Origin: Trichostrongylus colubriformis
Taxonomy: Eukaryota; Nematoda; Chromadorea; Rhabditida; Trichostrongylidae
Assembly: GCA_963978905.1 (NCBI GenBank)
Contig: OZ022259.1
Coordinates: 2,852,001 to 2,916,000, forward strand
Direction: 5' to 3'
DNA length: 64,000 bases
The position numbers and the translations under genes are program-made. Every line of letters starts with the position of its first letter. Positions within the stretch are counted from its first letter, which is position 1. Of the stretch, positions 1,850-19,800 are shown in pieces. The notes beneath the pieces are model-generated. The model was given only the letters and a program-made list of their open reading frames with translations. It made no database searches and was not told the origin of the DNA.

Positions 1850-4800
1850 CTGAAAATTTTGATCTAAAGACTTCTTGAAGCAGGACTGTAGCATTAGGGA
1901 GACATCTGTAAGCAGACTATACTGGCAAAAAAAACCTTCAAGAACCCACTTTGCCACAACATAGAAATTTGAAAAACGTGAAGTCACTGTCACTGAATAT
2001 ATAGTCAAAGAACAAAGTCGCCGCGCTCATCCAAATGATGTCCAGTAATAGCATAACCAAAGCGGCTCCAGCGTTGAAGCGATAAGAGATGTCTTCAAAA
2101 ATATTGAGGAACGACAAGTCACGATCTAAAGCCATAAACATTGAGAAATTTAACATTAGCAAACAGTTTGGCGTTATTTTGGAGAACAGAATAAACTTGC
2201 CTCGTCCCAGGTAGTCGGCCATCGTCATAATGGCATATGCGAAAGCCGCGTGTGGGTTAATTGAGAAAAGAGTGCAATAGAGAATCTGCTCCACACGAGG
2301 AGCCCAGTACACAACCACAACCATTACAATCCATAATACAATTGTCACTGGAAAAAATTGGGGACTTTCATTTCTGTCATTGGGCATCGGCCGAGCGAAC
2401 TCTCTGCTGGTGGTGGGTGAGGAAAGCAAACCAGACGCTTTTGACAATCGGCTGCTACAGTAACCATGTTTTCGCGCCAGGGCGCGTATCGACGCTGCTC
2501 GTTGTCATCACACACTCTCTCGCGTTTTGTCGTTCTCTCTGCGCTCTCCGCGTAGGAGAAAGCATGTGGCAAGCTGCCGGTGAATTGTACTACGCAGGCC
2601 GTCTAGGGGAGGCAACACCCATTGCAGAGCGGAGAGCGGAAACCGGAGGAGAACTGAGTTAAGGAGGAGAGCATGGAAGAAGGGGCGGCGCACGGTGAAC
2701 CGCTTCAATTTTTGAATATGCATGGGGTGATGGCAGGATTGCATCCATCTGGAGCTTCACCGATGCGGTAACGTTTCTGGGGCGATGGATGGTTACGGTG
2801 CACACCGTTGTTGTAAACAGGAATTACCTTCGGCCACAGGCCATATCAACCCGCTGCGTCGAAAGTTCCTTCCCCTGCAATGCACGCGAAGCGCTCCACG
2901 AGTCGCGTTAAAACGAAGTTAGGTGCCATCGCAACGGGGGGGGCATCCCATAATACAACGGGACCCTATTTTTACCTAACAATAAGCCGTGAAGGGGAAA
3001 AGAGCCCTCCTTTCCCCCTCCAAGGCTTAGGCAAAAGTATACGCGTGAATGTGCAATTGACCCATCAAAGATCTCTCCACGATGCGCAGATAAGCAACTT
3101 TTTAGAAGAGCCCCCCCCCCCCCTCATTGCAATAGCACCCAAACCTAAAGCATTAAAACATCTGCTTTTAACATAATTCCTTCGTTCTTGTGTTTGAGGT
3201 AAGCAAACCAGACCCAAAACAATTGGGATGTAAGGAAGCATGTGTTGGTCCTGCCACGAAAACCTGATTTCTGTATCAGCCGATTGTCAAAAGTGCTGGT
3301 TTGCTCACCTCGTGGTGGGTGGAGTTCAAGTGTTCCGACTGGTGAGGTAAGGTCAGGTTGCGCGGCGGATTGGAATCAGGTGAAGACAGGTAAAAACACG
3401 CTGCCAAAGCTGCTTCCCTAAAAGGGCTTAGGCTATAGAGACTCTCGCTCTATTTAGCTTTGTTATTGTCATTTATTAATAACCAAGTATTAGCATTATA
3501 TTGCACTCGTTTCACTGTATCGATTTTCTTGTAAGCTTCAATATCATTATCTCTTGGCTGATCTGGGATTGTAAAGGGAAACATAGAGTTAGCCACGCCC
3601 AACTTATACAGTATATAAGTGGCACGTAGAAGAGCTTTAGCACATTTTTCTTATTCTCTTTTAGCATTAGTTAGCTTTGTTAATAAAGTTTAATTACCCA
3701 AGTTTGAGGTGTGCTGGAGCATATGGTGCATCGGGCCTGAGCGACCCAGGACAAGTCAAGGATCGATCAAGGAGCAGAAACCCGAGGATCGATTAAGGAA
3801 CGAACCACAATCCGATCGATCAAGGAGAGGAAATCCGAGGATCGAAGGAGAACGAACCAGAGACGAATAGTGCCAGGAGCGGAAGCCGGGAGGATATCGA
3901 ACGAAGGAGTGAGTAGCAGATCCTTCGCTTCGCACAAGGTCCCGTTCGCGCATGCACAACGTCCGTTGTCTGCACTGCTGAGAGATTGCATCGTTGCATC
4001 ACTAACTGTCTGACCGAGTAGTCGCACTAACATGACCACTTCGCTTTCAAGTAGACAAGGACTTCTAACACGATCTGTAAATCGGCTTGCCGCTGTAGTG
4101 GACGAGCACAGGGACCTAGAGACATGGGCACTAGAACCCCCCTCCGAAGACCACGAACGTAGGACTTACCTAAGGGCAGAACGATTGAGGATTCGGAAAG
4201 TCAAGGCAATCCTCGATACAGAAACAAGCAACGTGGACACGGCTCTTGAGCGCTACAGCACCGCTGCTGATAGCCTTGATGCCGACACCCCTTCTCTGAA
4301 CGAGATTCTCGAGAAAGTCAGTTCCAACATTGAGAGGGCTTCCGCCACACTGGACGAGGGACGTGTCGTACAGACAGCAGTGGCTCGCCTCTTAGGGGAA
4401 CTAGACGAGATCGAGAAAAGTAGCACTACGGGCGATACTGCAAGCTCCCCAGACCTTCCTCAGCTGAAACTAGCTCCAATCCCAATTCCTAAATTCAGCG
4501 GACGGGTCTGGGAGTGGGATACGTTTTGGACAGCCTTTGAACATTCTGTGGATTCTCGAGAGATGGACGACATCTACAAAATGAACTATCTACTCGACGC
4601 ACTTCACGGAGAGGCTAAAGACACCATAAAGCAGTACGAGGTTTCCGGACGGACGTACCCACTTGTTGTCGCTCGACTGAAGGAGAAGTATGGTAATTCA
4701 CGGATACTTATAGACCAGTTGATACGTCGACTGCAACAGGCACGAGCCCACAGCAATCGTCTGGAACATCAAGAAAAACTCTGGGAAGAGTTGTCGTCAA

Positions 4801-7800
4801 TTGTAGCCCAACTTCAACTCAAGGGAGAAAATGTCGACAACAGCTTCCTCCAGAACCAGTTGCTCGGAAAGTTCGCAGAAGGAGTCCAACGCCACGTCTT
4901 GCGAATGAAGGAAAACCAAACAACGGATGTTACCTGGAACACCAATACGCTTCTCGATTGCGCGCGAAACTACATAAGTACTGAACTCCAAATCGTCAAT
5001 CAGATGGGGAATAAGCATGACCAGCAACTTGATCGAAACTCCATAGCAGTTAAGAAGAATACCTTCACAGGGAAAAGAATCAATTCGGCATTGGAACGCT
5101 TGAACCCCTGTTTCTACTGTGGAAAAGTGGATCACAACCCCAAAGACTGCAGAGAAGTGGCCACGCGAGAACAGAGACTGACATTCATGCGCAAGAAGAA
5201 TCTCTGTCTCAACTGCGGAGCAAAGGATCACTGGGCGGTCCAGTGTAAAGGAGGGTCGTGTAGAATGTGTAGGCAGCGCGGCCATCACACTTCACTTTGC
5301 GAGCAACTTCCTTCACGGAAGACCACAGTTTTTCAAGAAACTAGGAAACCACTTCCTGCAGCAAATAAGGGCACTTCGAAACGCCCTATGCAAAAGTCTG
5401 CGACATCACCAAAGGTCAACGTCGTGCTATCAGAAGCGGACAAGTCACAGGACGAGGTATCTGCATTCGTAAACATTCACAGAGGCAGCAACGACGTCCA
5501 CATACTTGTAGGAGAGGCACAGGTAATGAATCCCAAGAATCAAGCACTGGAACCAATTCATGTTCTGCTCGACACAGGAGCAGATCGCTCCTTCATTAGC
5601 AGTGAATTGGCAGATCACCTACAACTGCAGGATCTCAAGTTGATCGAATTGAGCATCAACACATTTGGGTCCAACCAACCGTTGAAACAGACATGCGGAA
5701 TAACTCAACTGCAGTTGTGGGATAAATCTGGAACCTCTCATAGAATAGAAGTCACCAAAATCGATACGGTCACGGAACCCATGGTACGACAAAGCCTCGA
5801 CCTGAAAGACAAACAGTTCCTGTTCGATAAAAATATTCATCTTTCAATTACTTCCCACGCAACGGAAATCAAACCGCAGGTCCTACTCGGATGCTCTGAC
5901 CTCTACGCATTCCTTGATGAAGGATTCGCGGCAAGGATAACCCTTCCATCAGGGTTGACACTCATTCCCTCTAAACTAGGATACCTCGTGTCAGGATGCC
6001 CCAGCAGAGATGATAAGGACGAAGAAATACCGAGTCAACCGGTCGTAAACAGCGTTTCATCAAGGTTCAATGGAGACCTGCAATCCTGGGAAGAATTCTG
6101 TACATTTGAAGCAACAGGAGTTCATGAGTTCACTGGGCCGAGCGTTGAAGAACGGAAGAGGATGGACGCCGAAATTTGGAAAAGATTTGAGCGGACCATC
6201 GAGAGTACGGAAGATGGCTATCAAGTACGCTTTCCCTGGAAACAGGATGCCATCACACTCCCTGATAATAAGGCACTCGCTGTGAAAAGACTTCAAGGGA
6301 CAATAGCTAAATTTGCAGATGATGAAGAGTCGCTACAACAATACAACGGTATCATAATGAATCAACTCGAGCAGGGGATTATTGAAGAAGTCAATGAAGA
6401 AACTCCTAGCGAAGGATCAATTGTCCACTATCTCGCACATCACGCAGTCAAAACGCCAACCAAGGCGACTACAAAACTTAGGATAGTCTTCGACGCCTCA
6501 GCACATCTCAAAGGACAACCATCGCTAAATGACGTCCTCTACCCAGGACCAGTGATCCTGCCCAAGATTTGCGACATCCTACTTCGATTTCGAATTGGGA
6601 GGGTCGCAATCATCAGTGATGTCGAGAAGGCATTCCTTCAAATAAGACTCCATCCCAAGGATAGGGATGCCACAAGGTTCCTGTGGCTGCGCGATATCGC
6701 TCAACCTTTGACACCAGCTAACATGATCACCTACCGCTTCACAAGGGTGACATTCGGCTTAAATTGCTCGCCTTTCCTTCTTGCCGGCACAATCAAACAT
6801 CACCTGGAAACACGCATGAAGAATTCGCAGCTGGGGAAGGAAATAGCCAGCAATACTTACGTGGACAATGTAATAGTCACTACATCATCAACGGAGGACG
6901 CGATGCGACTATATGTCGATTCGAAGCAGTTGTTCAGAGACTTGAATATGAACTTACGAGAGTATCGCTCCAACGATGAAATACTCAACAGGCACATCTC
7001 CTCAACGGACCTCAGTACAAACGTAGTTCAAAAGGTACTGGGAGTGTCGTGGAATACCCAAGAAGACCAGATTCTCCTGAAGTGTCAATATCGACCTACA
7101 CCAGCCGTGCCAACAAAGAGATCTGTCTCAGAGCAAGTAGCGTCAATATATGACCCACTTGGATTGCTTACGCCCTTAACATTACGAGGAAAGCAGTTCT
7201 TACAACAACTGTGGGCACACGACTATGGATGGGATACTCCATTGACAGCTGAACACCGACAGACGTGGTGCCAAATCCTCGAAGATGCCAGTGGATACCA
7301 AATTGCACTCCCACGGAGAGTAGCGCACATTGATTCAGAATCAGTTCTAGCCGTTTTCTCAGACGCAAGTGCAAACGGAATGAGCGTTTGTTCATATTTG
7401 GTCTCAGAAGATGGAAGTTATCTTCTCGCTGGGAAGTCGAAACTACCATCCTTGAAGGAGAACCCAACAATTCCGAAATTGGAACTCAACGCGATCACAA
7501 TGGCAACGAGATTGGCCTACTCGATTCACAGTGCTATCTGTGAACGCGTCAATATAGTGCAAGTGTGTATATTCTCCGACTCGGAAATAGCGCTAAGCTG
7601 GGTCAAAGCGCCAACTCTGGAAAAATCAGCCGGAGTACTTGTCAGAAATCGAAGAGCCGAGATCAGGAGAATCGTGGCCGAATTTCCCACACCAGTTCTG
7701 TTCGGGTTTGTACCCTCGACAAAAAATCCAGCAGATTGTGGGACGCGGGGACTCACGAAAACAGAGTTCGAGGGCCACATGTGGTGGAGAGGTCCAGAGT

Positions 7801-10800
7801 TTCTTCAATATCCACTATCTCCACCCGAAGAGTGCCGTCTCTCCACATTTCCCCCAGAATCGACTGAAGAAGAGACGTGCGTCGTAGCAGTGACGACGAA
7901 GTCCACAACTGAACTAGTGGACTGGGGCCGACAGAGTTACTTGCCCTCCGTCAAACGTACGCTCGCATATGCTCTACGCTTCATCCGTCAACTGTCTCTG
8001 AAGCTTAACGAAGAATTACGCCACCGCCTAGAGAGCAATATCCCGGAACTTTGCTACATGTCATCAGAACCATACATCACAGCCACGGAAAATGAAATGG
8101 CATTGCGTGTTCTCGTTCGTCATCACCAAAGAATCCACTTCACACCATCGCAATTGAAATCATTGAAACAACTGAATGTGAGACCAGACGAAGCTGGAAT
8201 ACTACGATGCCAAGGACGTTTCGGAAAGGCTCACATGAGTCTCGACACGAAAAATCCCATGCTAGTCGCTTCAAAAACGGAACTATCCAGAGCAATAGTG
8301 AAGGAAGCACATCTTCCTTATCACTGCAGTACAGCACAAACTATCGCTAACGTCCGACAACAATTCTGGATCCCGAAGATACGGCAAATGGTCAAGCAAT
8401 TTACACGATTGTGCATTCCATGCCAACGCTTGAATAATCTTCCGTTCAAATATCCCGACATGGAAGATTTACCCGAGCGACGTGTAATACGCACACGCCC
8501 TTTCGAACATGTTGGAATTGACTATTTCGGGCCACTGTCGGCAAAGCAGAACGATACTCCGATCAAGGTCTACGGGATTATCATCACATGCACGGTCACG
8601 CGACTGTTACACCTCGAACTTGTACTAGACATGTCTACCGAGCAATTGCTACACGCACTACGCAGGTTCTTTGCAAGACGAGGTGTCCCAGCAAGCATAA
8701 CATCGGACAACGGTCCATCCTTCTTACTCGGAGAACAAGTGCTTCATGATGCAGTTTTTCCTGTCATCAACGACGTCTCATTTTCAACTGCAATGGCCAC
8801 AAAGGGGATTCTGTGGAGAACAATCACCCCATATGCTCCGTGGCAGGGAGCATTTTACGAGCGATTGATTAAGTCTGTGAAGCACTCCCTATACAAGGTC
8901 ATCAAAAGAGAAGTCGTTCATGTGGAGACACTTGAAACTCTCCTGATCGAAGTGGAAGGCACGCTCAACAGTAGACCCTTGACGTACCAAGAAGAACATT
9001 GGCAAGACACACCAATACTCAGACCCATCGATTTCATTCAGCGTGACATGATAATAGCATACCCACTTGAATCCATCACCGGCGATTTCGATGATACCGA
9101 GTACCATCCAACAAAGGAGGCGGTCCAGCTAAGAACGAGGAGACAGGCGGAAGAGGCCCTCAAATCTAGTCATGAGTTGACAGAGCGGTTCTGGAAGATG
9201 TGGAATGAGCACTACCTCCGCAGTTTAAGAGAAACACACAAGCTTTCCATAGATAACAAACGAGGTTCAGCACTTTCGCCTGCCATTGGAAACGTTGTGT
9301 TGATCGCAGATCCTCTGATGCCGCGGAACTCATGGAGGCTTGGACGTATTCGGGAATTACCTCGTTCAGAAACGGGGACAATCAGAGAAGCACTATTGAA
9401 TCTGCCTTCCGGACGTGTAGTGCGCAGACCAATCAATCACCTCATCCCACTGGAGTTGGAGGATTCACCTGATCAATCGAGTTCGTACGATGGAGATGTT
9501 CGGCAACACGACCGATCTTCTAACGAAACCGAAGAACAGAAAGAGGAAGCACCTCGATATGATCTACGACCACGAAAACATATGAATTACTACGAGGTGA
9601 CGACACAAGGGTCCCAAATTTACTCCGCAAATACGAAACGGGTCCCACTCAAATTCTTCATCACTTGTCTCACAATATTCATGCTGATGCAGCAAGCGGC
9701 CGCTACATTAGCACAAGGGAAAATGCAGTGCATCTCAGGAGGCGTTATGATAACCACTCAAAATATTGAACGTTACGAACTTTGCGCAGAAGGCCACTGT
9801 CACGTGTCAGAACACCCTCAAGGGAATGAAACGATCCTACTCCCACCCGAGGTTCTCTTGCATGAGCACCATGTCCAGCTGAAGCTATTCGATGGCTACA
9901 ATCTGACGGTACTTGAAACAACGTGTCTCCCTGTATCGTTTTGCGAACATGTCCGGTGTTGGTTCTGCACCGCTAACATGTTCAACCCAGAATGCTCACC
10001 TAGGACAGCCATCGCATCGACCGCAGTAACCTTGTACATTGTCATAGCACTCTTGTATGTACTGTGCTACGTCCCAATGGTAGTCGGGAAACCATGTCGC
10101 ATTATCTGTAAGACAGCATGGATCGTTTTCACAGCGATTGCACGTTTACTGTGGAACCAATGCAACAAGTTTCGAAGAAACCGACGAAGGAGGTACGATG
10201 TCGAAGCTTTGCTGAAGGCACCACTACTGGCCATTGCTTGCATAGCTGTCTTTGCGCCATCAACACTAGCATGCCAAGACATAGACGTCTTCTCACATCA
10301 ACACTCCGTGTGCTCTTTCTCCCCGAACGGATACAAACGATGCATGTTAGAAACCACGATAATAGCGAAACTCAACAGTTTCAACAAGGAGGCTTGCATT
10401 CGACTAATAAATAAGCAGACAGTGGAGAAGGAACTCCGCATCCAATGGAAACACCTTCGGCTAAACTGTGTGAAGGATAACATAGTTTTCACAAGGAACA
10501 CTATCCAACGTGTTGTGGATTCTAAACGGTGCCCCCACTCTGGCTCCTGTACAAATGATAAATGTGCATCCGTCAACACTTCAGCTCACATAGCCGAACT
10601 CGAACACGGCAATCGGTATCCCGGACTAACCTTTTGTGTCGAAAGCTGCGGAGGACCGGGCTGCGGATGCTTTTACCTCAGTAGCGGATGCCTATTTTAC
10701 AGAATATTTCACATACCAACGGATTCGAAAATCTATGAAATCTTCAAATGCCCTCAGTGGCAAGAAGAAGTGGAGCTGGAAATCACCACTGTCAGCAGGC

Positions 10801-13800
10801 AGAAAAGTGTTGAGAAGAAGGTCGTAGTAGTGCACCCTACTGTACCGACCAACACCGACAACATGCGGATTACCCTTAGCGCACTGGCTGTTCCACCAAC
10901 GCCAGCCTTGTCATCAACTTTCATCTCCGATGGATCGCATCTAGCCACCTGGAACCACAAAGATAAACCACATCTCCAGTGCGGGTCAGAAATGGATGCG
11001 AGATCGCTCAATTGCTCGGTAACCACGTCGTGCAATTGCGAACCGGCTGAGAATAAGATCAACTGCCTATGCGTGGACGCTAACATCACAGAGATCTTCA
11101 CAAGGGATATAGAAACACGCTTCCCAATACATCGTCCATGGATAACATTCACACCTTCGAAAACTAATAGGGCATCAGTTACGGCAGAAATTCCGTCATT
11201 CACAACAGCAGAATTCGTCATTCACTTGACGGACCATGTCGACAAGACAGTCACAATGGTAACTGATTCCGTGTGCACTATCCCAAACTCAATAGCCCAG
11301 GGGTGTTATAACTGTCCTCAGGGAGCTACTGCACAAGTAACCTGCACTACAGACGGAAACGACACTATGGCAACAGTACAATGTGGCGATCTCTTCTTCA
11401 CCATCCCTTGTAACCGGAAAGGAGCAATATCGACATTACGATTCAGTCATGCCTCGGCAAGGGTCAAGAAAGAGTGCAAGGTTTCGTGTGGAAAATCGGA
11501 AACGATATTTGAGATCACTGGTATCCTTCAGTGGATACGCACGATTCATGGATCCACTCTGAAGATTCTTGCAGGGGAAAGTAGTGTATACGACGAGCTT
11601 GTGTTCCCTGACTTCGGACATATCATCGACGTATTCCTGTCATGGTACAAGACGCTTCTGATTGCGTGCGTAGTGCTTATACTCGCAAGCGTCATAGGAT
11701 ACGTATTCCTTTGGTCTTGTGGGATCAATATCATACAACGTGTGCTACGCGTGTCTTGGATAATCGTACGGAAAATAGTAAAAATACCCCTCTGGATGTT
11801 GAAAACTGCATGGAGATCCGCTGCTTTCATTCCCCGACAATCCACGAAGGGATCGGAGAAACTTCTATAAAAGATTTACTCTGTCGCATGAAACAACTGA
11901 CAACACGACGTTCTATTCTTTACGATCTCTCTTTAGCCATGGACACAACATCTACAACTCCCAAGGACAAAACCGCCAAACCAGCAGAACGAACCACCCA
12001 GGCATCTACATCCACCGCTAAGCCTATCAAGCCCGATGCGAAGGGAACAGTGAGTTCGAAGCCTCATATGATTGCCACACAGAAACCAGCGAACAATTCG
12101 GACACAACGTCGACGACTCCTAACCGAAAACGTCAACGAGACTCGTCTTCGTCATCTTCAACGTCATCTTCGTCCACTGAAGACGCCGGCGATATTCCAC
12201 CTAAGAAGGGACGAGCCGCTGGGACCCTTTTCCAGGAACTCTTGAAGCAAGGTGCTCGCACTCTGCACCTTGCCGCGAGCAAAGTGGACCAACTCGCCCC
12301 TGTGGTAAAGACAACTCCGTGTCCGCAGACAACAGAGCGTCTGAAACACCTCGAAGATCTGGTCAAAGCGTATCACGTGGAAACCATCAAAAGGCTCAAG
12401 GTAACCGAAGGAAAACTAGACTCGCTAAATCTCAAGGTGAACGTACTCACGACTCGCTTCGAGACGATGGAAAAAGAGGTCAAAGAGAGAATGAATACAA
12501 CTGGCGCTGTAGAAGGTCACACAGTGAGTGAAAATCATTGGAACGAGCTTCACGATGACATCAAGGGGTTACAAGATGCAATGGGAAAGCTCAACATCTC
12601 ACAACTCTCTCTCGATATTCGCACACTTCATGGACGATTCGAAGAGTGGAGCTCTCGCCTTTCACATGGTAATACAACAACAATGGCAAGTGCCCCCGCG
12701 GAGCCCACCCCTGAGGTGGAACGCATCAGACGTCTTATGAATGAGACGGAGAAAGAACTAAAAGAAGTCCGAGACGCGATGCTTGTAATCAACAGAGATA
12801 TCGAGAAAGAGTGGCAGAGGGAAGGTGGCAGAGTCAGCTCCACTAAAAGGATCGACGAATTGAAGGAAAGAAGAAAGAGATGTCAATCAAAGGAAGAAAT
12901 GCTTGAAAAAGAAATGCGAGATCTGCAGCTGAGGCTAGAACGCGAAATGGCAGGGATCAATCGTGATCAGGAGGATCGTCGCCGTCACGACGACGAAGGC
13001 AGGAGGCATGAGAGAGGCGCGACATCGGAGCGAGACAGACGCGGGAGGACGAAGGGAGGCAGACAATCATACAACGTTCGTGATGCACATCGCAGCTCCA
13101 CAACATCGTCAGACCGTACGTGAGAAAGGAGGGCAATGGAGCAGGCTGGGCAGTGGATACAGGCTATCAGTTATTGTGTCCGCGGGAGTATAGAGACTCT
13201 CGCTCTATTTAGCTTTGTTATTGTCATTTATTAATAACCAAGTATTAGCATTATATTGCACTCGTTTCACTGTATCGATTTTCTTGTAAGCTTCAATATC
13301 ATTATCTCTTGGCTGATCTGGGATTGTAAAGGGAAACATAGAGTTAGCCACGCCCAACTTATACAGTATATAAGTGGCACGTAGAAGAGCTTTAGCACAT
13401 TTTTCTTATTCTCTTTTAGCATTAGTTAGCTTTGTTAATAAAGTTTAATTACCCAAGTTTGAGGTGTGCTGGAGCATATAGGCAAATCTGGGAGAGCCCA
13501 GACGGCAGGACACGCCACCATTCGGACAATTCGCGAAGCGTCGCCGCGCGCGTTGACCCAATTCGGTGCCGATCTCCAGAAATCGGAACACTTGCAACAC
13601 ACCCACGGTGACCAGTCAACTGCGGTTGTATTTGATATATGCGTAGCGCAGGAAAGGCGATTAAGGTTTTTGCGATTCTCCTATAGTATTGTATGGGGGA
13701 TCGTGACGAGAGCCCAGGAAAATTGGAATATGGCATATATGGCGCTATGCCAAGATTCAAAATCGAAATCGTGGTCTCTCGCCGATCATCGTACTGTAGT

Positions 13801-16800
13801 GTGGTTGGGTCAAGCGTTTGCAAACGGTGCGCGTTATCTAATTTACGCCGTCGTCTGCGGCAGGCAAATGATTGCGTCAGTTTGACGCTGGTGCCGGCGT
13901 CAATTGACGCAGACACGTAAAGTATGACCGTGTCCTACAATTCTCAGATCTCCTTTGAAATCCTAACTTTGCAATGGGCATGTTTCTACTTAGACTCAGA
14001 TATCATAGCAAGTCACATGGTGATAAAAATTTGTGATAACGGATGAATAAAGGCCGGCAAGTACGAGTGGGCCACTAGGAGTGTCGGTAGACGGACAAAT
14101 GTGCAGCGGCACTCACTGCCGCGACGCATGAGCTCGCGCGTCGCGGCCTCCATGATGAGGCGAGCTGGCATGCTTATGAACTCTAGGTATTCTTATCTCG
14201 TCGGGCAAGGCTCTTCGTGAGCAGCACATGAGATCTTCGACTACTACGGTATGTGTAAGAGTGACTCCTAACTCGCCGCTAAAGCGGCGAGTTAAGAGTC
14301 TCGCGCGCTTCGCGCGCATTGCAAGGGAAGGAAGCCTCGACGTGAGGGCTAATATGGGCCGTCGCCGAATATCGTTGTTGAGCTTCTGACATCGGTGAGA
14401 AGAAAGCGACTCTTGTCATCACAGAATGTATACTCAAGTGTATATTTTAAGCTAAGCCTGCAAGGGAAGGAAGCCTCGACGTGGGGGCTAATATGGGGTG
14501 TCGCCAATATCGTTGTTGAGCTTGTAACATCGGTGAGAAGAAAGCAACTCTCAACTCGCCACTAAAGCGCGCCACCCTACAACAACCTGAACCGAAGAGT
14601 ACCCGCTACTAAATTTACGATTTGGAACCCCAATTGTAATCTCAACGGTCCACCCTCTCTACTTCACCGCTGCCCCACGCATCCTCCGCTTTCGTCGAAG
14701 TGGCCGGGTATCTCGCCACGTGCTCTCTCTTACGCGGAGTGCGCAGACGGAGCGACGAAACGGGAGAAGGGCGCCCACTGCTGACGAACCGCGACGCAAG
14801 CTCACGCGTCGCGGTAGTGAGTACCGCTGTCTTTTACCATTTCCTGGCCACTAGTAGCAACTCGAGATTTTCAAATAAGCTGTGGATTTGTCATGCTGTG
14901 GATTTGTCATGGGAGGAAAACTAATCGCCCATCCCCAATGACCCCTGCCTGATTGTGACGAACACTCAGAAAGAAACTTTGTGACCAAAGCAACCAATCA
15001 CAGATGTTTCTAATGTCTCCCGTCGTCTGATTGACATTCACGTGGTTATGAAGTTCACTGAAGTGTCGCGAGTGTAAGACGCCGCTATGTCTCACATTCA
15101 GCAAATTGGATAAAACTTCGACTTCATTCTAAAAAAGTGGTCATCGGAGCCGTGGAGAACCAAGGAATGCGTAATCAGCGCGCAAAAATACTCGTGAGCT
15201 TTGCAGCAATCACTACCAGAATTCTACCAAGTTTCGGGAATTCCGGAGAGCAAACTTTGATGCAACTCTGTTCTGAAAAAGAAAGAAGAAACCTTTGAGG
15301 ACAGTGTTCGGTTTCTTGAATAGGGATGACATGAACGCTGCGAAGACCACTGCCGATACACCGTACAGAACCAATACAACCACAAAAAGTGGTACGCTCA
15401 CGGACTGAAAAAAGGTGCATTAAATAAGTAAGAAAACTGAGAAATCTTGAACTGCGAACTGTAAGGCATTGCGCTTCCCAGGCTAACTGGCCATCTACTG
15501 GGAAACTAGGATCGGCGAAATGGCAAATCACCTTTTTCGCTTGCCAGTTTTTTTTATCAATTAAGGTTTAAAACGTTTCAGCTCAAAGTTAACGCCTAAT
15601 GTGCCGTTATAAAGTAAAAAGAGAAAGAGCTAAGAAAAGAGAACATTTCCCCACTCGACCCGACCGGTAGAGGGAGCAAGGACCAAAAGTAGGCCACACT
15701 GAATTTAATGACATACCTCGTGATAATCAGGTTAGTCGACTTACTTTTTAGGGAAATAGATGCTCGGGCAACTACTATTGGAGGTGTACAGTTGTCACGC
15801 CGTTATGGTGCACCATCCCGGCACTGCCACCCGCTGAGACCTAAGCTAGCAGCGTAGCTGGATCGGGTTTGAGCGGGTGCAGAGGCGTGAAGGAACACGT
15901 GGAGGCGCAACAACAGCGCAACCCGGATATCTGCCTGACGATCTTCTGCCCCAAGAAAAACCTCCGATCTGATTATCGCGAGGGGTGCTTTCAAAGGATA
16001 CCATATGAGTGAGGCAAACTATCAGCGCCTAAGGCCGCGCTCATACTCTGCGCCGGCACGGCGTAGCTACGTTTCCAGGCAACGGCGAGAGTGGCACGGG
16101 GAAGCTGCGGAGACGACGCAGGCAACGAGACATGATGGCATGGGCGGAGACACAGAAATACGCAGCCACGCCCTGCCACCGGCACCGCAAAGTATGAACG
16201 CGGTCTAAGGCCGCGCTAACACTTTGTTCCACCAGGGCGCCACTTCACAGGCAGCGAAGCAGAATATCACGGGGAGGTATAGAAGCGACGCGGGCAACGA
16301 GACAGAATTATCTGGGGGTGGGGGTCACGCAGTCGAATTTCCGCGCGGCTGCGCGCGACGAGCGGCGCGGCGGTTGCGGGTACCAATGGCAGGGCATGGC
16401 AGCCTGCATGCGAGGCAGTGTGGCATGAGTGGAGGTGCAGACGTGACGCAGTCACGCTTGGCCATTCTCCCACGGGCAATCGATACGGTGAGTCGTACTG
16501 CTGACGCCGCGAGTGCACCGCCGCGAGGCGGAAGTTCGAGCTCGTGACGCCCACCCATGGTCTGGGCGGAGATGCAGAGATTATTATCTACGCCCTGCCG
16601 CCAACACCGCAAAGTATGAACGCGGCCTAATGTTGCCCATGTCGCGACAGCGCAAAGGTATACAAGTTGGACTCGCACTTTCATACTGGCAATATGCTTT
16701 CACTAAACAAAGAACTACCAGTGAAAAGGGGACGGAAATCAACCGATCAATAAATAAACTCACTCCCATCTTGGTAAGTAATGGAGCGGCACATACAAGG

Positions 16801-19800
16801 AACACGAGAAGGATTTTTAATAAGCCGTAAAGTACATGTGAAAGGTAGAAAACCGTCCTCGAAAGGCCCATTACAGACAGAAAGTCCTGAACATGCTAGC
16901 TAAACACATTTAGGTAATATTTACTAAGTGATCCATAGAATCCTTCGAGCTAACCTTTACTGTACTCCGTTCACCAGCTATCTCTCTTGCCGTATGAATA
17001 ACCAGCACAAATGCACAAAAACCCCAAAAATAATGGGACATATTCAAAAAACCTGCCACAGACTTTATAATTTGCTTTGGTTCTGGTATTCGTCGAATCG
17101 AAAGTTCTGGCAAAAAGGTGACATTCGATGATGAAGCCTGAAGGACGATCATCAGTACGAGCATCATTTCGGAATCACCCGTTCTGTATATCAGTGTACA
17201 CAAACCTGTATAAAGAGACTATCAATGGCGTACTGTAGTGATAGAAAACCTGATGACCAGTACGGTGGTTTCGTGGGGATGCTGAGAAAAGACGGATCGA
17301 CTATTTTCAGCGAGTATATCGACATTATATCGCAGCTCACCTATCGTGGTCGATATTGATTCCAAATGGATTATCCCACTCTTCGTCCAGGTGCCAGGGA
17401 TCGAGAAAGATAGCGATAAAAGACACGGGCTTGAGTATGGCGTAGTCGAGCACTGCAGCCTTTGTGTCGAACTGTTTAAACAGAACGCCGCCTGCGAATC
17501 TCAAAAGGGAGAAGATCACGTTGAGATTATCTTTATATGGGTAGGTGCATGGGTTCCGAACCACCGCGGCTGATTTAGCTGTAGTTTCATGGCTATATTT
17601 ATTAGGTTGTCCCAAAAGCCTTGTAGGATTTTTTCGATCATCACTTTTTATTATTTTTTCTTCCAACAAACAACAATCAGGCCACAACGTATTCACCATT
17701 GTTATCGACAATACTCTGCCCCTTCATAGGTAAATAGTTGATTCCCTCCTCCCAAAACTCTGGGTTCTGAGAGTCGAAAAGTCAGTGATCGCCTTTGCAA
17801 GCATGTCATAGTCAGCGAATTTTCTCTTGGCCAGGAAGGATTCTAGAGGATGGGTAAGGTGATAGCCAGAAGGGGCAATGTCTGGATAGTATGGCGGGTG
17901 GGGCAGCACATCGCAGTCGGGCTCCTGTAGCTTGGCCTGGATACACTTCGCGACGTAGGGGTGGGCGTTGTCATGGAGGGTGACCGCGGACCTTCTCAGG
18001 CGCTTTTCTAGAATAGCGATGGCGATCTGTTGGAGCTGGTGGGTGTATACGGAAGCGGGTACTGTCTCGCCTTGTGCCAGAGTCTCGTGAAAGAGCATCT
18101 CTTCCGCGTCCAGAAGCAGCAGGGTAGAGTCTTCTCGGATGGAGGTCGGACAAGGGCTGCGTTGGCGGCTCGGCGTCACGTAGCAGCCAAAAGGCGCGCG
18201 GTGCCTTGGTATCGTACGTGTCCCAACTAATATCCCCTGTAGCCACATAGACGAGAAAGTCGCTGCGATGCGGGCGGAGCAGCAGCGATTGACAGATGCT
18301 CACACGGGCACTTTCGTGAGCACCCGTCAGGGCATGAGGTCCATCGCGACAGCACCTTCCGATAACCGGGCTCGTGGTGGCGACGATTAACGGTTATGGG
18401 TGCCTATCAATTCCTCTCATCTAGCTCGCGCATAGTGGTCTCAGGATCGGCGCGAACGGCGGAGAGCAGCGTCTCGTCGTCGAATGCGTGTGGGCGTCCC
18501 GTGCGTGGCTTTCCTTCGATGTAAATCTCGCCGTTGCTGAAGCTGATGAGCCAGCGGCGCATGGTTTCGTAGCTCACACATCCCTTGCCCAATGCAGCGT
18601 TGAAGGAGTGGCCAGCTTCCGTCGCTTTGGTGCCGCAAGACCAGTCATAGTAGATGAGACCGCGTGACTACGGGCACTGTAGCTCTCTCTAAGGGATCTG
18701 GTGGGCCAACATATATTTTACTGGAAAGCTCAGAGAACGTTCTACTATATCCTGAACCGCCTAGACCTGCCTTGGATTGAACTCGAGTTATTGATTTTTT
18801 GGAGTAATCCTACAAGACTTTTGGGAAAACCTAATACTTTTGCCTGGCAATGGGAAATGGTTCACACTATAAAAAATCAAATCCTAATCTTTAATCACAA
18901 AGATTGACGACATAGTCAGAGGGTTCACTGCAGAATTTTTGAAAGACAGTCATCAGAAGGTAGAAACTACTACTACTACTCCCGTGTTCCACATGCCAAC
19001 ATCAGAGAGTAGATACGAGGAAAACAATGAAAATACACTCTTCAGTCCAATAGTACGGCTAATTCTGGGTTCAAGCCACCATGAGAGATCACAGGCGCCC
19101 AAAATTTGTGTAACAGCCAAGAGAAGCACCGAGCAAGCGTAGCGTGGTTAGCTAGATGCACTATCGATGAAGCCACGGTTGCAGAATCCTCGATGAAAAG
19201 TTGTTTTGGGTCTAACAAGGGAAGGTGTTTTACTTCCCATGGAACTTTGAAATGAGAGTCGGGGCGATCGATAGAGCTTCGAACGCTGATTATAACTGTG
19301 AAAACCAAAAATGCTACCTGGCATTCTGAAGCGAGTAACGATGGGTCAAAGTTTGCCTGTGAACCTCATTGGCGAGGCACTTTGGTAAAACCCAATCACC
19401 CACGTACCCAACCCCGCAGATCTGGAACACTACCAGTAAGCCACTGTGGTCAATTCTGGCTATCCAACGGCCTTGCTGATGGCAAAGTGCCTCGCGAATG
19501 AGATGTCACAGGCAAGTCACAGGCAAACTTTGACCTATCGTAACTCGCTTCAGAATGCCAGGTAGCAATTTTGGTTTTCACAGTTATAATCAGCGTTCGA
19601 AGCTCTATCGATCCCACCGAGTCTCATACCAAAGTTCCATGGGAAGTTAAATACCTTCCCTTGTAAGAACGGGGAATGATTGTGGGGTAACTCCCTAAGG
19701 AATCAGAAATTCTCGACGATCTGTTTTCGATAAATTTTGAGTCGATGTGTGGCTTCTAAAAAAGTCGACAGCCCATCATACTTCTCTGCACTAGGAAGTA

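What the first reader, a model, noticed from the sequence alone, without database searches (positions are those of the whole stretch)
11642..13123. Undescribed coiled-coil ORF3 downstream of env in a BEL/Pao element
Seen: a 394-codon open frame between the env stop and the 3' LTR, with a good start context, basic patches, a serine run, two long charged coiled-coil-like regions and an Arg/Asp/His-rich tail. Known: BEL/Pao elements typically code for gag-pol, with env in some lineages; I know of no such third protein. Inference: an accessory protein analogous to retroviral regulatory or nucleic-acid-binding factors.
Basis: partly seen in the sequence, partly recalled or inferred. Interest (0 to 1): 0.88.

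Follow-up and report, generated by a model that had tools for sequence, protein, structure and literature searches.

The report
Spliced accessory gene in worm retroelement
A recently inserted retrovirus-like element in a parasitic worm carries a real extra gene behind its envelope gene; the gene is kept by selection, sits behind a conserved splice site, and may make a protein that handles the element's own RNA.

Summary
The frame is real and is a gene. The coding part is ATG 11939 to stop 13123 (394 aa); 11642-11938 is probably a fortuitous extension overlapping env. The element (identical LTRs, TSD TAGGC) is a recent BEL/Pao insertion with a phlebovirus-type Env, probably in Trichostrongylus. 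ORF3 matches fall at 32 loci of this genome; 25 have env upstream on the same strand, and one family keeps ORF3 without env. NG86 dN/dS is 0.22-0.29 for pairs with dS 0.1-0.3: purifying selection. Protein searches found relatives only in strongylid nematodes. A 3' splice acceptor ends exactly 2 nt before the ATG in 26 of 26 distinct loci read, although flanks have diverged, and 13 of 13 env-bearing leaders placed have a GTRAGT donor: ORF3 very likely comes from a spliced mRNA. Best mechanism: a helical, Arg-rich nuclear RNA-handling protein working like CERV of Cer1 (genomic-RNA export); this is inferred, not shown. Unexpectedly, the LTRs carry nt 2-22 of the host spliced leader SL1, as do those of at least three other BEL families here; two recombinant copies switch at or near it, suggesting that SL1 serves as the R region.

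The parts
3429..3433 (.). left target-site duplication TAGGC
   Evidence: sequence, (same 5 nt at 13479-13483)
3434..3723 (+). 5' LTR, identical to the 3' LTR
   Evidence: 291-nt direct repeat, 100%; its last T is shared with the TSD/PBS
3612..3619 (+). TATA box TATATAAG in the 5' LTR
3682..3687 (+). AATAAA directly before SL1
3688..3708 (+). nt 2-22 of the host spliced leader SL1 in the 5' LTR, followed by GT
   Evidence: 22-nt SL1, only the first base mismatched; 0 in 100 shuffles at up to 3 mismatches; SL1 sequence from PMC7652881
3724..3734 (+). primer binding site TGGTGCATCGG (tRNA-Gly match recalled)
   Evidence: copy L005 holds a whole tRNA-Gly(gcc) at this place
3908..3909 (+). predicted 5' splice donor in the leader: exon end 3908, GTGAGT from 3909
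   Evidence: GTRAGT in 13 of 13 env-bearing copies whose leader could be placed
4032..11870 (+). single gag-pol-env frame, 2612 aa
   Evidence: Pfam DUF1759, RVT_1, Peptidase_A17, integrase, DUF5641, Phlebovirus_G2
10272..11222 (+). Phlebovirus_G2-like part of env
11936..11937 (+). predicted 3' splice acceptor TCTCTTTAG|CCATGG (last intron base 11936), 2 nt before the ORF3 ATG
   Evidence: YAG 2 nt before ATGG in 26 of 26 distinct loci
11939..13123 (+). ORF3, 394 aa accessory protein
12197..12301 (+). most conserved stretch of ORF3, residues 87-121
12323..12670 (+). helical (coiled-coil-like) region, residues 129-244
12710..13006 (+). second helical region, residues 258-356
13007..13120 (+). 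low-confidence, probably disordered Arg-rich tail, residues 357-394
13189..13478 (+). 3' LTR
13443..13463 (+). SL1 nt 2-22 in the 3' LTR
13479..13483 (.). right target-site duplication TAGGC

Best explanation
ORF3 is a genuine accessory gene of a lineage of strongylid-nematode BEL/Pao elements. Its mRNA is made by splicing to a conserved acceptor 2 nt before its ATG, which removes gag-pol-env, joined either to the conserved leader donor at 3908 (cis) or to the host SL1 leader (trans). The protein enters the nucleus (basic patches beside a serine run), self-associates through its helices, binds RNA with its Arg-rich tail, and helps the intron-containing full-length RNA escape splicing and leave the nucleus, working like CERV of Cer1 or Rev of lentiviruses. 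Shown here: gene, selection, position, splice-site conservation. Inferred: actual splicing, nuclear entry, self-association, RNA binding, export.
For: ORF3 matches at 32 merged loci of the genome (39 rows, a lower bound), 25 of them with env within 2.5 kb upstream on the same strand. Four of the other seven are family E; in L020 a DUF5641-bearing pol frame ends 128 nt before the ORF3 ATG. NG86 dN/dS of ORF3: 0.289 (L001-L005, dS 0.10), 0.225-0.252 (five family B copies against L009, dS 0.28-0.29), 0.237 (L014-L019, dS 0.25); for L001-L005 gag is 0.258 and env 0.189. YAG exactly 2 nt before ATGG in 26 of 26 distinct loci; across five family representatives five of the seven positions -9 to -3 are invariant, while ten-base bins from -100 to -11 have 0.24-0.35 ungapped pairwise identity. 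Leader donor GTRAGT in 13 of 13 env-bearing copies placed, against 0.43 per kb in the window. Protein hits in Haemonchus, Cooperia, Teladorsagia, Ostertagia, Trichostrongylus and Nippostrongylus. Precedent: CERV's C-terminal half lies between pol and 3' LTR, its spliced mRNA is seen with and without SL1, and it is needed for gRNA export (PMC10309623 abstract, sections 4, 9, 15; PMC3315495 passages).
Against: No RNA data: splicing is inferred from sequence. No convincing match in Pfam, PDB sequences or PDB folds; CERV's sequence was not fetched, so no direct comparison was made. As described, CERV has a cysteine-rich loop and M/G domains; ORF3 shows neither and has its own ATG. The model is of moderate quality (pLDDT 63.3, pTM 0.31). 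YN00 gives weaker dN/dS (0.36-0.48 for the same pairs). Gag is far more constrained than ORF3 in L014-L019 (0.025 against 0.237), so ORF3 is under looser selection there. Between families dS is saturated or nearly so. The copies compared are related, so 26 of 26 and 13 of 13 are not independent counts. The leader exon holds an ATG at the LTR/PBS border in each of the seven copies checked, which would precede ORF3 in a cis-spliced mRNA. Family E has no GTRAGT in the leader (0 of 3; GTGGGT instead). The acceptor motif alone is not rare (7 similar sites on both strands of the window). Several copies are broken by stops or frameshifts (L006, L007, L012, L021-L024, L026-L028).
Confidence: 0.55

Rival explanations
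1. ORF3 is a structural or packaging protein: a second, Gag-like nucleic-acid-binding helical protein that acts in the particle rather than in nuclear export.
For: Other BEL families of the genome have a 3' ORF with helical-looking charged stretches and a Cys/His cluster laid out like the Gag nucleocapsid (P0019, P0020, P0021, P0024; clusters alike by BLASTP, 6e-17 and 4e-11; resemblance to Gag judged by eye).
Against: The window's ORF3 has no such cluster and no detectable similarity to its own Gag or to P0019 (hhalign). A structural protein needs no separate splicing, as Gag comes from full-length RNA (general knowledge).
Confidence: 0.2
2. ORF3 antagonises the host: a suppressor of small-RNA silencing or of nuclear RNA surveillance.
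For: Low-complexity, lineage-restricted protein, 38-64% identical between species; ORF3 evolves faster than gag in L014-L019; small-RNA silencing of Cer elements is mentioned in PMC10309623 section 4.
Against: NG86 dN/dS 0.22-0.29 shows constraint and no sign of positive selection over the whole gene (site tests not run).
Confidence: 0.13
3. ORF3 serves the envelope (tail, chaperone or entry cofactor).
For: It follows env directly in most copies (25 of 32 loci).
Against: L020 of family E keeps an intact ORF3 (366 aa, LTRs 99.3% alike) with pol directly upstream; tblastn with the window's env found no convincing remnant in the 3' and 5' pieces held (best E 1.1; the middle of the elements was not read). 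No membrane stretch apparent by eye.
Confidence: 0.03
4. ORF3 is a passenger: a captured host segment or open read-through frame without function.
For: No family match; T-, S- and charge-rich low-complexity sequence.
Against: Purifying selection, conserved frame and position across diverged families and species, conserved acceptor.
Confidence: 0.03

Closest known systems
CERV of Cer1 (C. elegans, Ty3/gypsy)
   Same: C-terminal half encoded between pol and 3' LTR, made from a spliced mRNA, no obvious homology outside nematodes; candidate nuclear-localisation signal and helical region; cerv mRNA found with and without SL1 (PMC10309623, PMC3315495).
   Different: Cer1 is Ty3/gypsy and its 3' ORF is not an envelope; CERV's N-terminal half includes Gag-frame exons and it has a cysteine loop and G-protein-like domain. 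ORF3 is in BEL/Pao, has its own ATG, none of these domains, and an Arg-rich tail.
Atlas virus of Ancylostoma ceylanicum (belpaovirus)
   Same: BEL/Pao element with one gag-pol-env frame, phlebovirus-type Env and short identical LTRs (PMC9094657, abstract and passages).
   Different: 9204 nt, two 271-nt LTRs and a 2828-aa polyprotein leave about 175 nt (my arithmetic), so no ORF3 of this size fits.
ORF3 proteins of bdelloid rotifer LTR retrotransposons
   Same: A third ORF of non-envelope kind besides gag and pol (PMC5408684, abstract only).
   Different: Those are enzymes (GDSL esterase/lipase, DEDDy exonuclease) or env-like; this one is helical and Arg-rich and probably spliced.
SL1-flanked PAO elements of Brugia malayi
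   Same: 60 non-gene SL1 copies within 1 kb of PAO elements; [quoted passage not shown]
   Different: Here SL1 sits inside both LTRs, after TATA, in several BEL families and at or near recombination borders, suggesting a standing role as R.
Rev of HIV-1
   Same: Multimerises on viral RNA and exports unspliced RNA (as described in PMC10309623 section 15; Arg-rich character and spliced origin recalled; ORF3 parallels inferred).
   Different: No homology shown; no tested export signal or RNA target in ORF3.

Membership tests
CERV-type protein of Cer1 | encoded 3' of pol, own reading frame, made from spliced mRNA | tested here: inconclusive
   Position and frame met; splice sites conserved but no RNA evidence
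CERV-type protein of Cer1 | N-terminal half from Gag-frame exons | tested here: not met
   Conserved acceptor directly before ORF3's own ATG; frame opens only 36 nt upstream in 7 of 9 family B copies. Automated Cooperia and Teladorsagia models P0003 and P0010 do join Gag to ORF3, so such a product is not excluded without RNA data
CERV-type protein of Cer1 | cysteine-rich loop (C4-type) and G-protein-like domain | tested here: not met
   Sequence and all-helical model
CERV-type protein of Cer1 | required for gRNA export | not testable with these tools
   needs experiment
BEL/Pao (belpaovirus) with phlebovirus-type env (the element) | DUF1759 gag, Pao peptidase A17, RT-IN, DUF5641, Phlebovirus_G2 env, LTRs, short TSD | tested here: met
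Retroviral Rev/Rex-type export factor | Arg-rich RNA-binding motif, multimerisation, export signal, binding site in the viral RNA | tested here: inconclusive
   Arg-rich tail and helices only; export signal and RNA target not tested

The most novel reading that the evidence does not exclude
In these BEL/Pao elements the host spliced leader SL1 is the R region. Full-length RNA receives SL1 by trans-splicing at the AG that ends the LTR copy, so the first strand transfer of reverse transcription pairs SL1 complement with the SL1 copy in the 3' LTR and every round renews it from host SL RNA. The accessory protein ORF3 is the spliced-message partner of this system, keeping part of the RNA unspliced and exportable. 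An element family would thus have made a host trans-splicing leader part of its replication signal.
Probability: 0.33. Interest if true: 0.9.

Novelty: new variant of a known kind. Interest (0 to 1): 0.72.

Why it matters
It would extend spliced accessory genes of the CERV/Rev kind to BEL/Pao elements, in an apparently unrelated protein, and suggest that nematode retroelements repeatedly evolved a 3' spliced gene to manage full-length RNA. The SL1 sequence inside LTRs makes a concrete question testable with RNA sequencing: does a retroelement use host trans-splicing to define the 5' end and strand-transfer repeat of its genome?

Tried and rejected
Rejected: the start at 11642 (overlaps env; not open that far upstream in family B). 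Rejected: ORF3 as an env helper (family E). No support for ORF3 deriving from Gag (hhalign E 0.25) or from the Zn-type 3' ORF (E 0.21). A3 against the RS-tailed 3' ORF P0023 gave hhalign probability 2.4, E 0.019: not claimed. P0003-type Gag-ORF3 fusion was considered as the CERV-like product and set aside as an automated gene model. SL1 in the LTR as a cis-splice donor (SL1-GT): weakened, because in 6 of 30 dispersed copies the next bases are not GT.

Led nowhere: viral-contig scan (32 pattern hits, none confirmed); Rfam scan of 3000-14000 (no match up to E 1); PDB fold search (481 matches at E <= 10, 0 at E <= 0.001). Rows dropped: 5' leaders of L004, L009, L010, L012 and L022 were not placed by an LTR pair (16 of 21 five-prime pieces used, the window included). 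L011 gag rows are invalid (a stop was dropped by the aligner). Of loci L001-L030, L018, L025, L029 and L030 overlap others and were not counted again; the nine further rows have no locus and were not read. Pairs with undefined dS, dS above 2 (NG86 0.13-0.23) or dS under 0.03 (NG86 0.29-0.87 or undefined) were not used. One search compared the 39 ORF3 rows with 32 of the 136 env rows.

Full report
WHAT IS THERE. The window holds a BEL/Pao element with identical LTRs (3434-3723, 13189-13478), target duplication TAGGC on both sides, a tRNA-Gly-type primer binding site at 3724, and one gag-pol-env frame of 2612 aa (4032-11870) with Pfam DUF1759, RVT_1, Peptidase_A17, integrase, DUF5641 and Phlebovirus_G2. 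Behind it lies ORF3, ATG 11939 to stop 13123, 394 aa. In 1000 shuffles of 11871-13188 the longest frame was 260 codons. The host is probably Trichostrongylus: a T. colubriformis protein (P0014) is 98.6% identical over 210 aa to copy L007; this is an inference.

COPIES. The own-genome search gave 39 rows for ORF3 (a lower bound), which merge into 32 loci; 25 have env within 2.5 kb upstream on the same strand (against 32 of the 136 env rows). Five complete copies, the window's included, are 93-100% identical; a larger group (family B and relatives) is 43-46% identical over most of its length, with env about 60% and gag 56-58%; family C (L014, L019) has env 52%. Four of the seven loci without env are family E (L020, L022, L024, L028): in L020 a pol frame with DUF5641 is followed by ORF3, LTRs 99.3% alike; LTRs of L024 and L028 are 92% alike. 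tblastn with the window's env found no convincing remnant in the pieces held (best E 1.1; the middle of these elements was not read). ORF3 is therefore not tied to env.

SELECTION. NG86 dN/dS of ORF3 is 0.289 (L001-L005), 0.225-0.252 (family B against L009) and 0.237 (L014-L019). For L001-L005 gag gives 0.258 and env 0.189; for L014-L019 gag gives 0.025, so ORF3 is less constrained than gag there. YN00 for the ORF3 pairs is 0.36-0.48. Pairs with dS below 0.03 scatter widely and between-family pairs are saturated or nearly so; neither was used.

RELATIVES. Three protein searches (6, 15 and 16 hits; about 8000 candidates scored each) found only strongylid nematodes where a source names the organism: Haemonchus, Cooperia, Teladorsagia, Ostertagia, Trichostrongylus and Nippostrongylus; P0011, without a source, matches the window's ORF3 exactly. 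Cooperia model P0016 contains Phlebovirus_G2 and ORF3 in one model. P0003 and P0010 are automated models that join Gag to ORF3. The hookworm Atlas virus has, by its published sizes, no room for ORF3 (PMC9094657, passages).

PROTEIN. Low-complexity N-terminus with basic patches around a serine run, a strongly conserved stretch at residues 87-121, two long helical regions, Arg-rich tail. Mean pLDDT 63.3. No Pfam, PDB-sequence or PDB-fold match worth naming.

EXPRESSION. In 26 of 26 distinct loci a YAG ends exactly 2 nt before ATGG (TTYAG in 25, TCCAG in L023, L022 read from the same output). Across five family representatives five of the seven positions -9 to -3 are invariant, while ten-base bins from -100 to -11 show 0.24-0.35 ungapped pairwise identity. 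The leader between PBS and gag ATG holds GTGAGT or GTAAGT in 13 of 13 env-bearing copies whose leader could be placed, and GTGGGT in 3 of 3 family E copies. Copies within a family are not independent. ORF3 is thus very likely read from a spliced RNA; whether from the leader donor or from SL RNA cannot be told. One ATG or more in the leader exon, at the LTR/PBS border in all seven copies checked, would precede ORF3 in the cis-spliced form.

SL1. The LTRs contain GTTTAATTACCCAAGTTTGAG, nt 2-22 of SL1 as given for Haemonchus (window 3688-3708, 13443-13463; PMC7652881). Between families the LTRs share little else: where blastn of the window LTR hits other families it covers only 20-35 nt at this place, the mosaic L004 apart. 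In the ORF3-bearing pieces it occurs in 37 rows exactly (overlapping loci included); nine of 30 three-prime pieces lack an exact 20-nt core, with 1-2 mismatches in seven of them. The genome has 1244 exact copies, reversed control 0; the 100 places listed include a tandem series of about 450-bp spacing at C1:31.9-32.0 Mb, probably SL RNA genes (not checked). Among the first 30 loci the 200 nt upstream fall into 16 groups, eight same-strand pairs lie 4.5-9.8 kb apart, and the next bases are GT 24, AT 5, TG 1. Pairs outside the ORF3 lineage whose inner sequence is BEL (DUF1759) are L063/L064, L065/L066 and L069/L070; the unpaired loci were not shown to be LTRs. In L004 the promoter half of U3 is family B up to SL1 and U5 behind SL1 is family A. 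L014 and L019 differ densely from mid-ORF3 to U3 and not from SL1 to the LTR end (last difference 39 nt before SL1). Both fit a first strand transfer at or near SL1; DNA-level conversion at a shared stretch is not excluded. Against: family L083 has no SL1 in the pieces read, the base before nt 2 is G in only 5 of 30, and Cer1 full-length RNA was not SL1-spliced at the site used by cerv mRNA (PMC3315495). Prior report: SL1 near PAO elements of Brugia (PMC7181701).

OTHER 3' ORFs. Other BEL families of the genome also have a 3' ORF: charged helical-looking stretches plus a Gag-nucleocapsid-like Cys/His cluster in L064, L066, L070 and L084, with an acceptor 1 nt before an in-frame ATG in L064 and L066 and 3 nt in L084, none found for L070; and an RS-rich tail in L083, without an acceptor at its ATG. 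In L066 the frame is continuous with pol. Two of two distant env families read behind env (L083, L084) had a 3' ORF. The 4.5-kb element L069/L070 keeps gag, protease and the 3' ORF in a frame where most of pol is missing.

HOW IT MOST LIKELY WORKS. A full-length RNA that carries a strong donor and acceptor must avoid splicing and leave the nucleus to serve as gag-pol-env mRNA and genome. Cer1 solves this with CERV, made from the spliced RNA itself (PMC10309623). ORF3 has the matching gene position, splice design and gross protein character. This is an analogy, not homology.

LITERATURE. Searches for a third BEL/Pao gene in nematodes and for SL1 in LTRs listed no paper that I recognised as describing ORF3 or SL1 as R; most listed papers were judged by title and abstract start only, and only open-licence PMC papers are held, so absence is not proof. 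Papers: PMC10309623 abstract, sections 4, 9, 15 and passages; PMC3315495, PMC7652881, PMC7181701 and PMC9094657 passages (the last also abstract); PMC5408684 abstract.

Noticed in passing
3688-3708 and 13443-13463; L051-L080: Host spliced leader SL1 nt 2-22 embedded in LTRs of this element and of at least three other BEL families of the genome (16 upstream groups among the first 30 loci, not all shown to be LTRs).
   Followed up: partly
L034:1893-1966: 5' leader of copy L005 contains a whole tRNA-Gly(gcc) copy at the primer binding site, as if reverse transcriptase had copied the entire primer tRNA.
   Followed up: partly
L004:2748-3058: Mosaic LTR: family A U3 start, family B promoter half, family A U5, with a border at SL1.
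   Followed up: yes
L014:1848-2935 against L019: Two copies nearly identical in env differ densely from mid-ORF3 to U3 (and again from within gag): recombinant patch ending shortly before SL1.
   Followed up: yes
L064, L066, L070, L084: Other BEL families carry a 3' ORF with a Gag-nucleocapsid-like Cys/His cluster, three of the four with a splice acceptor just before an ATG.
   Followed up: partly
L069, L082, L070: A 4.5-kb element (SL1 to SL1) with alike LTR parts keeps gag, protease and the 3' ORF but lacks most of pol.
   Followed up: partly
G000:C6:2848333-2849061, left of the window: Another env-bearing BEL element (2723-aa open frame); SL1 with one mismatch behind its 3' ORF lies about 690 bases left of the window start.
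   Followed up: partly
904-1671 and 17629-18750: Inverted repeated pieces with mariner-like transposase fragments (label recalled, not searched) flank the element region.
   Followed up: no
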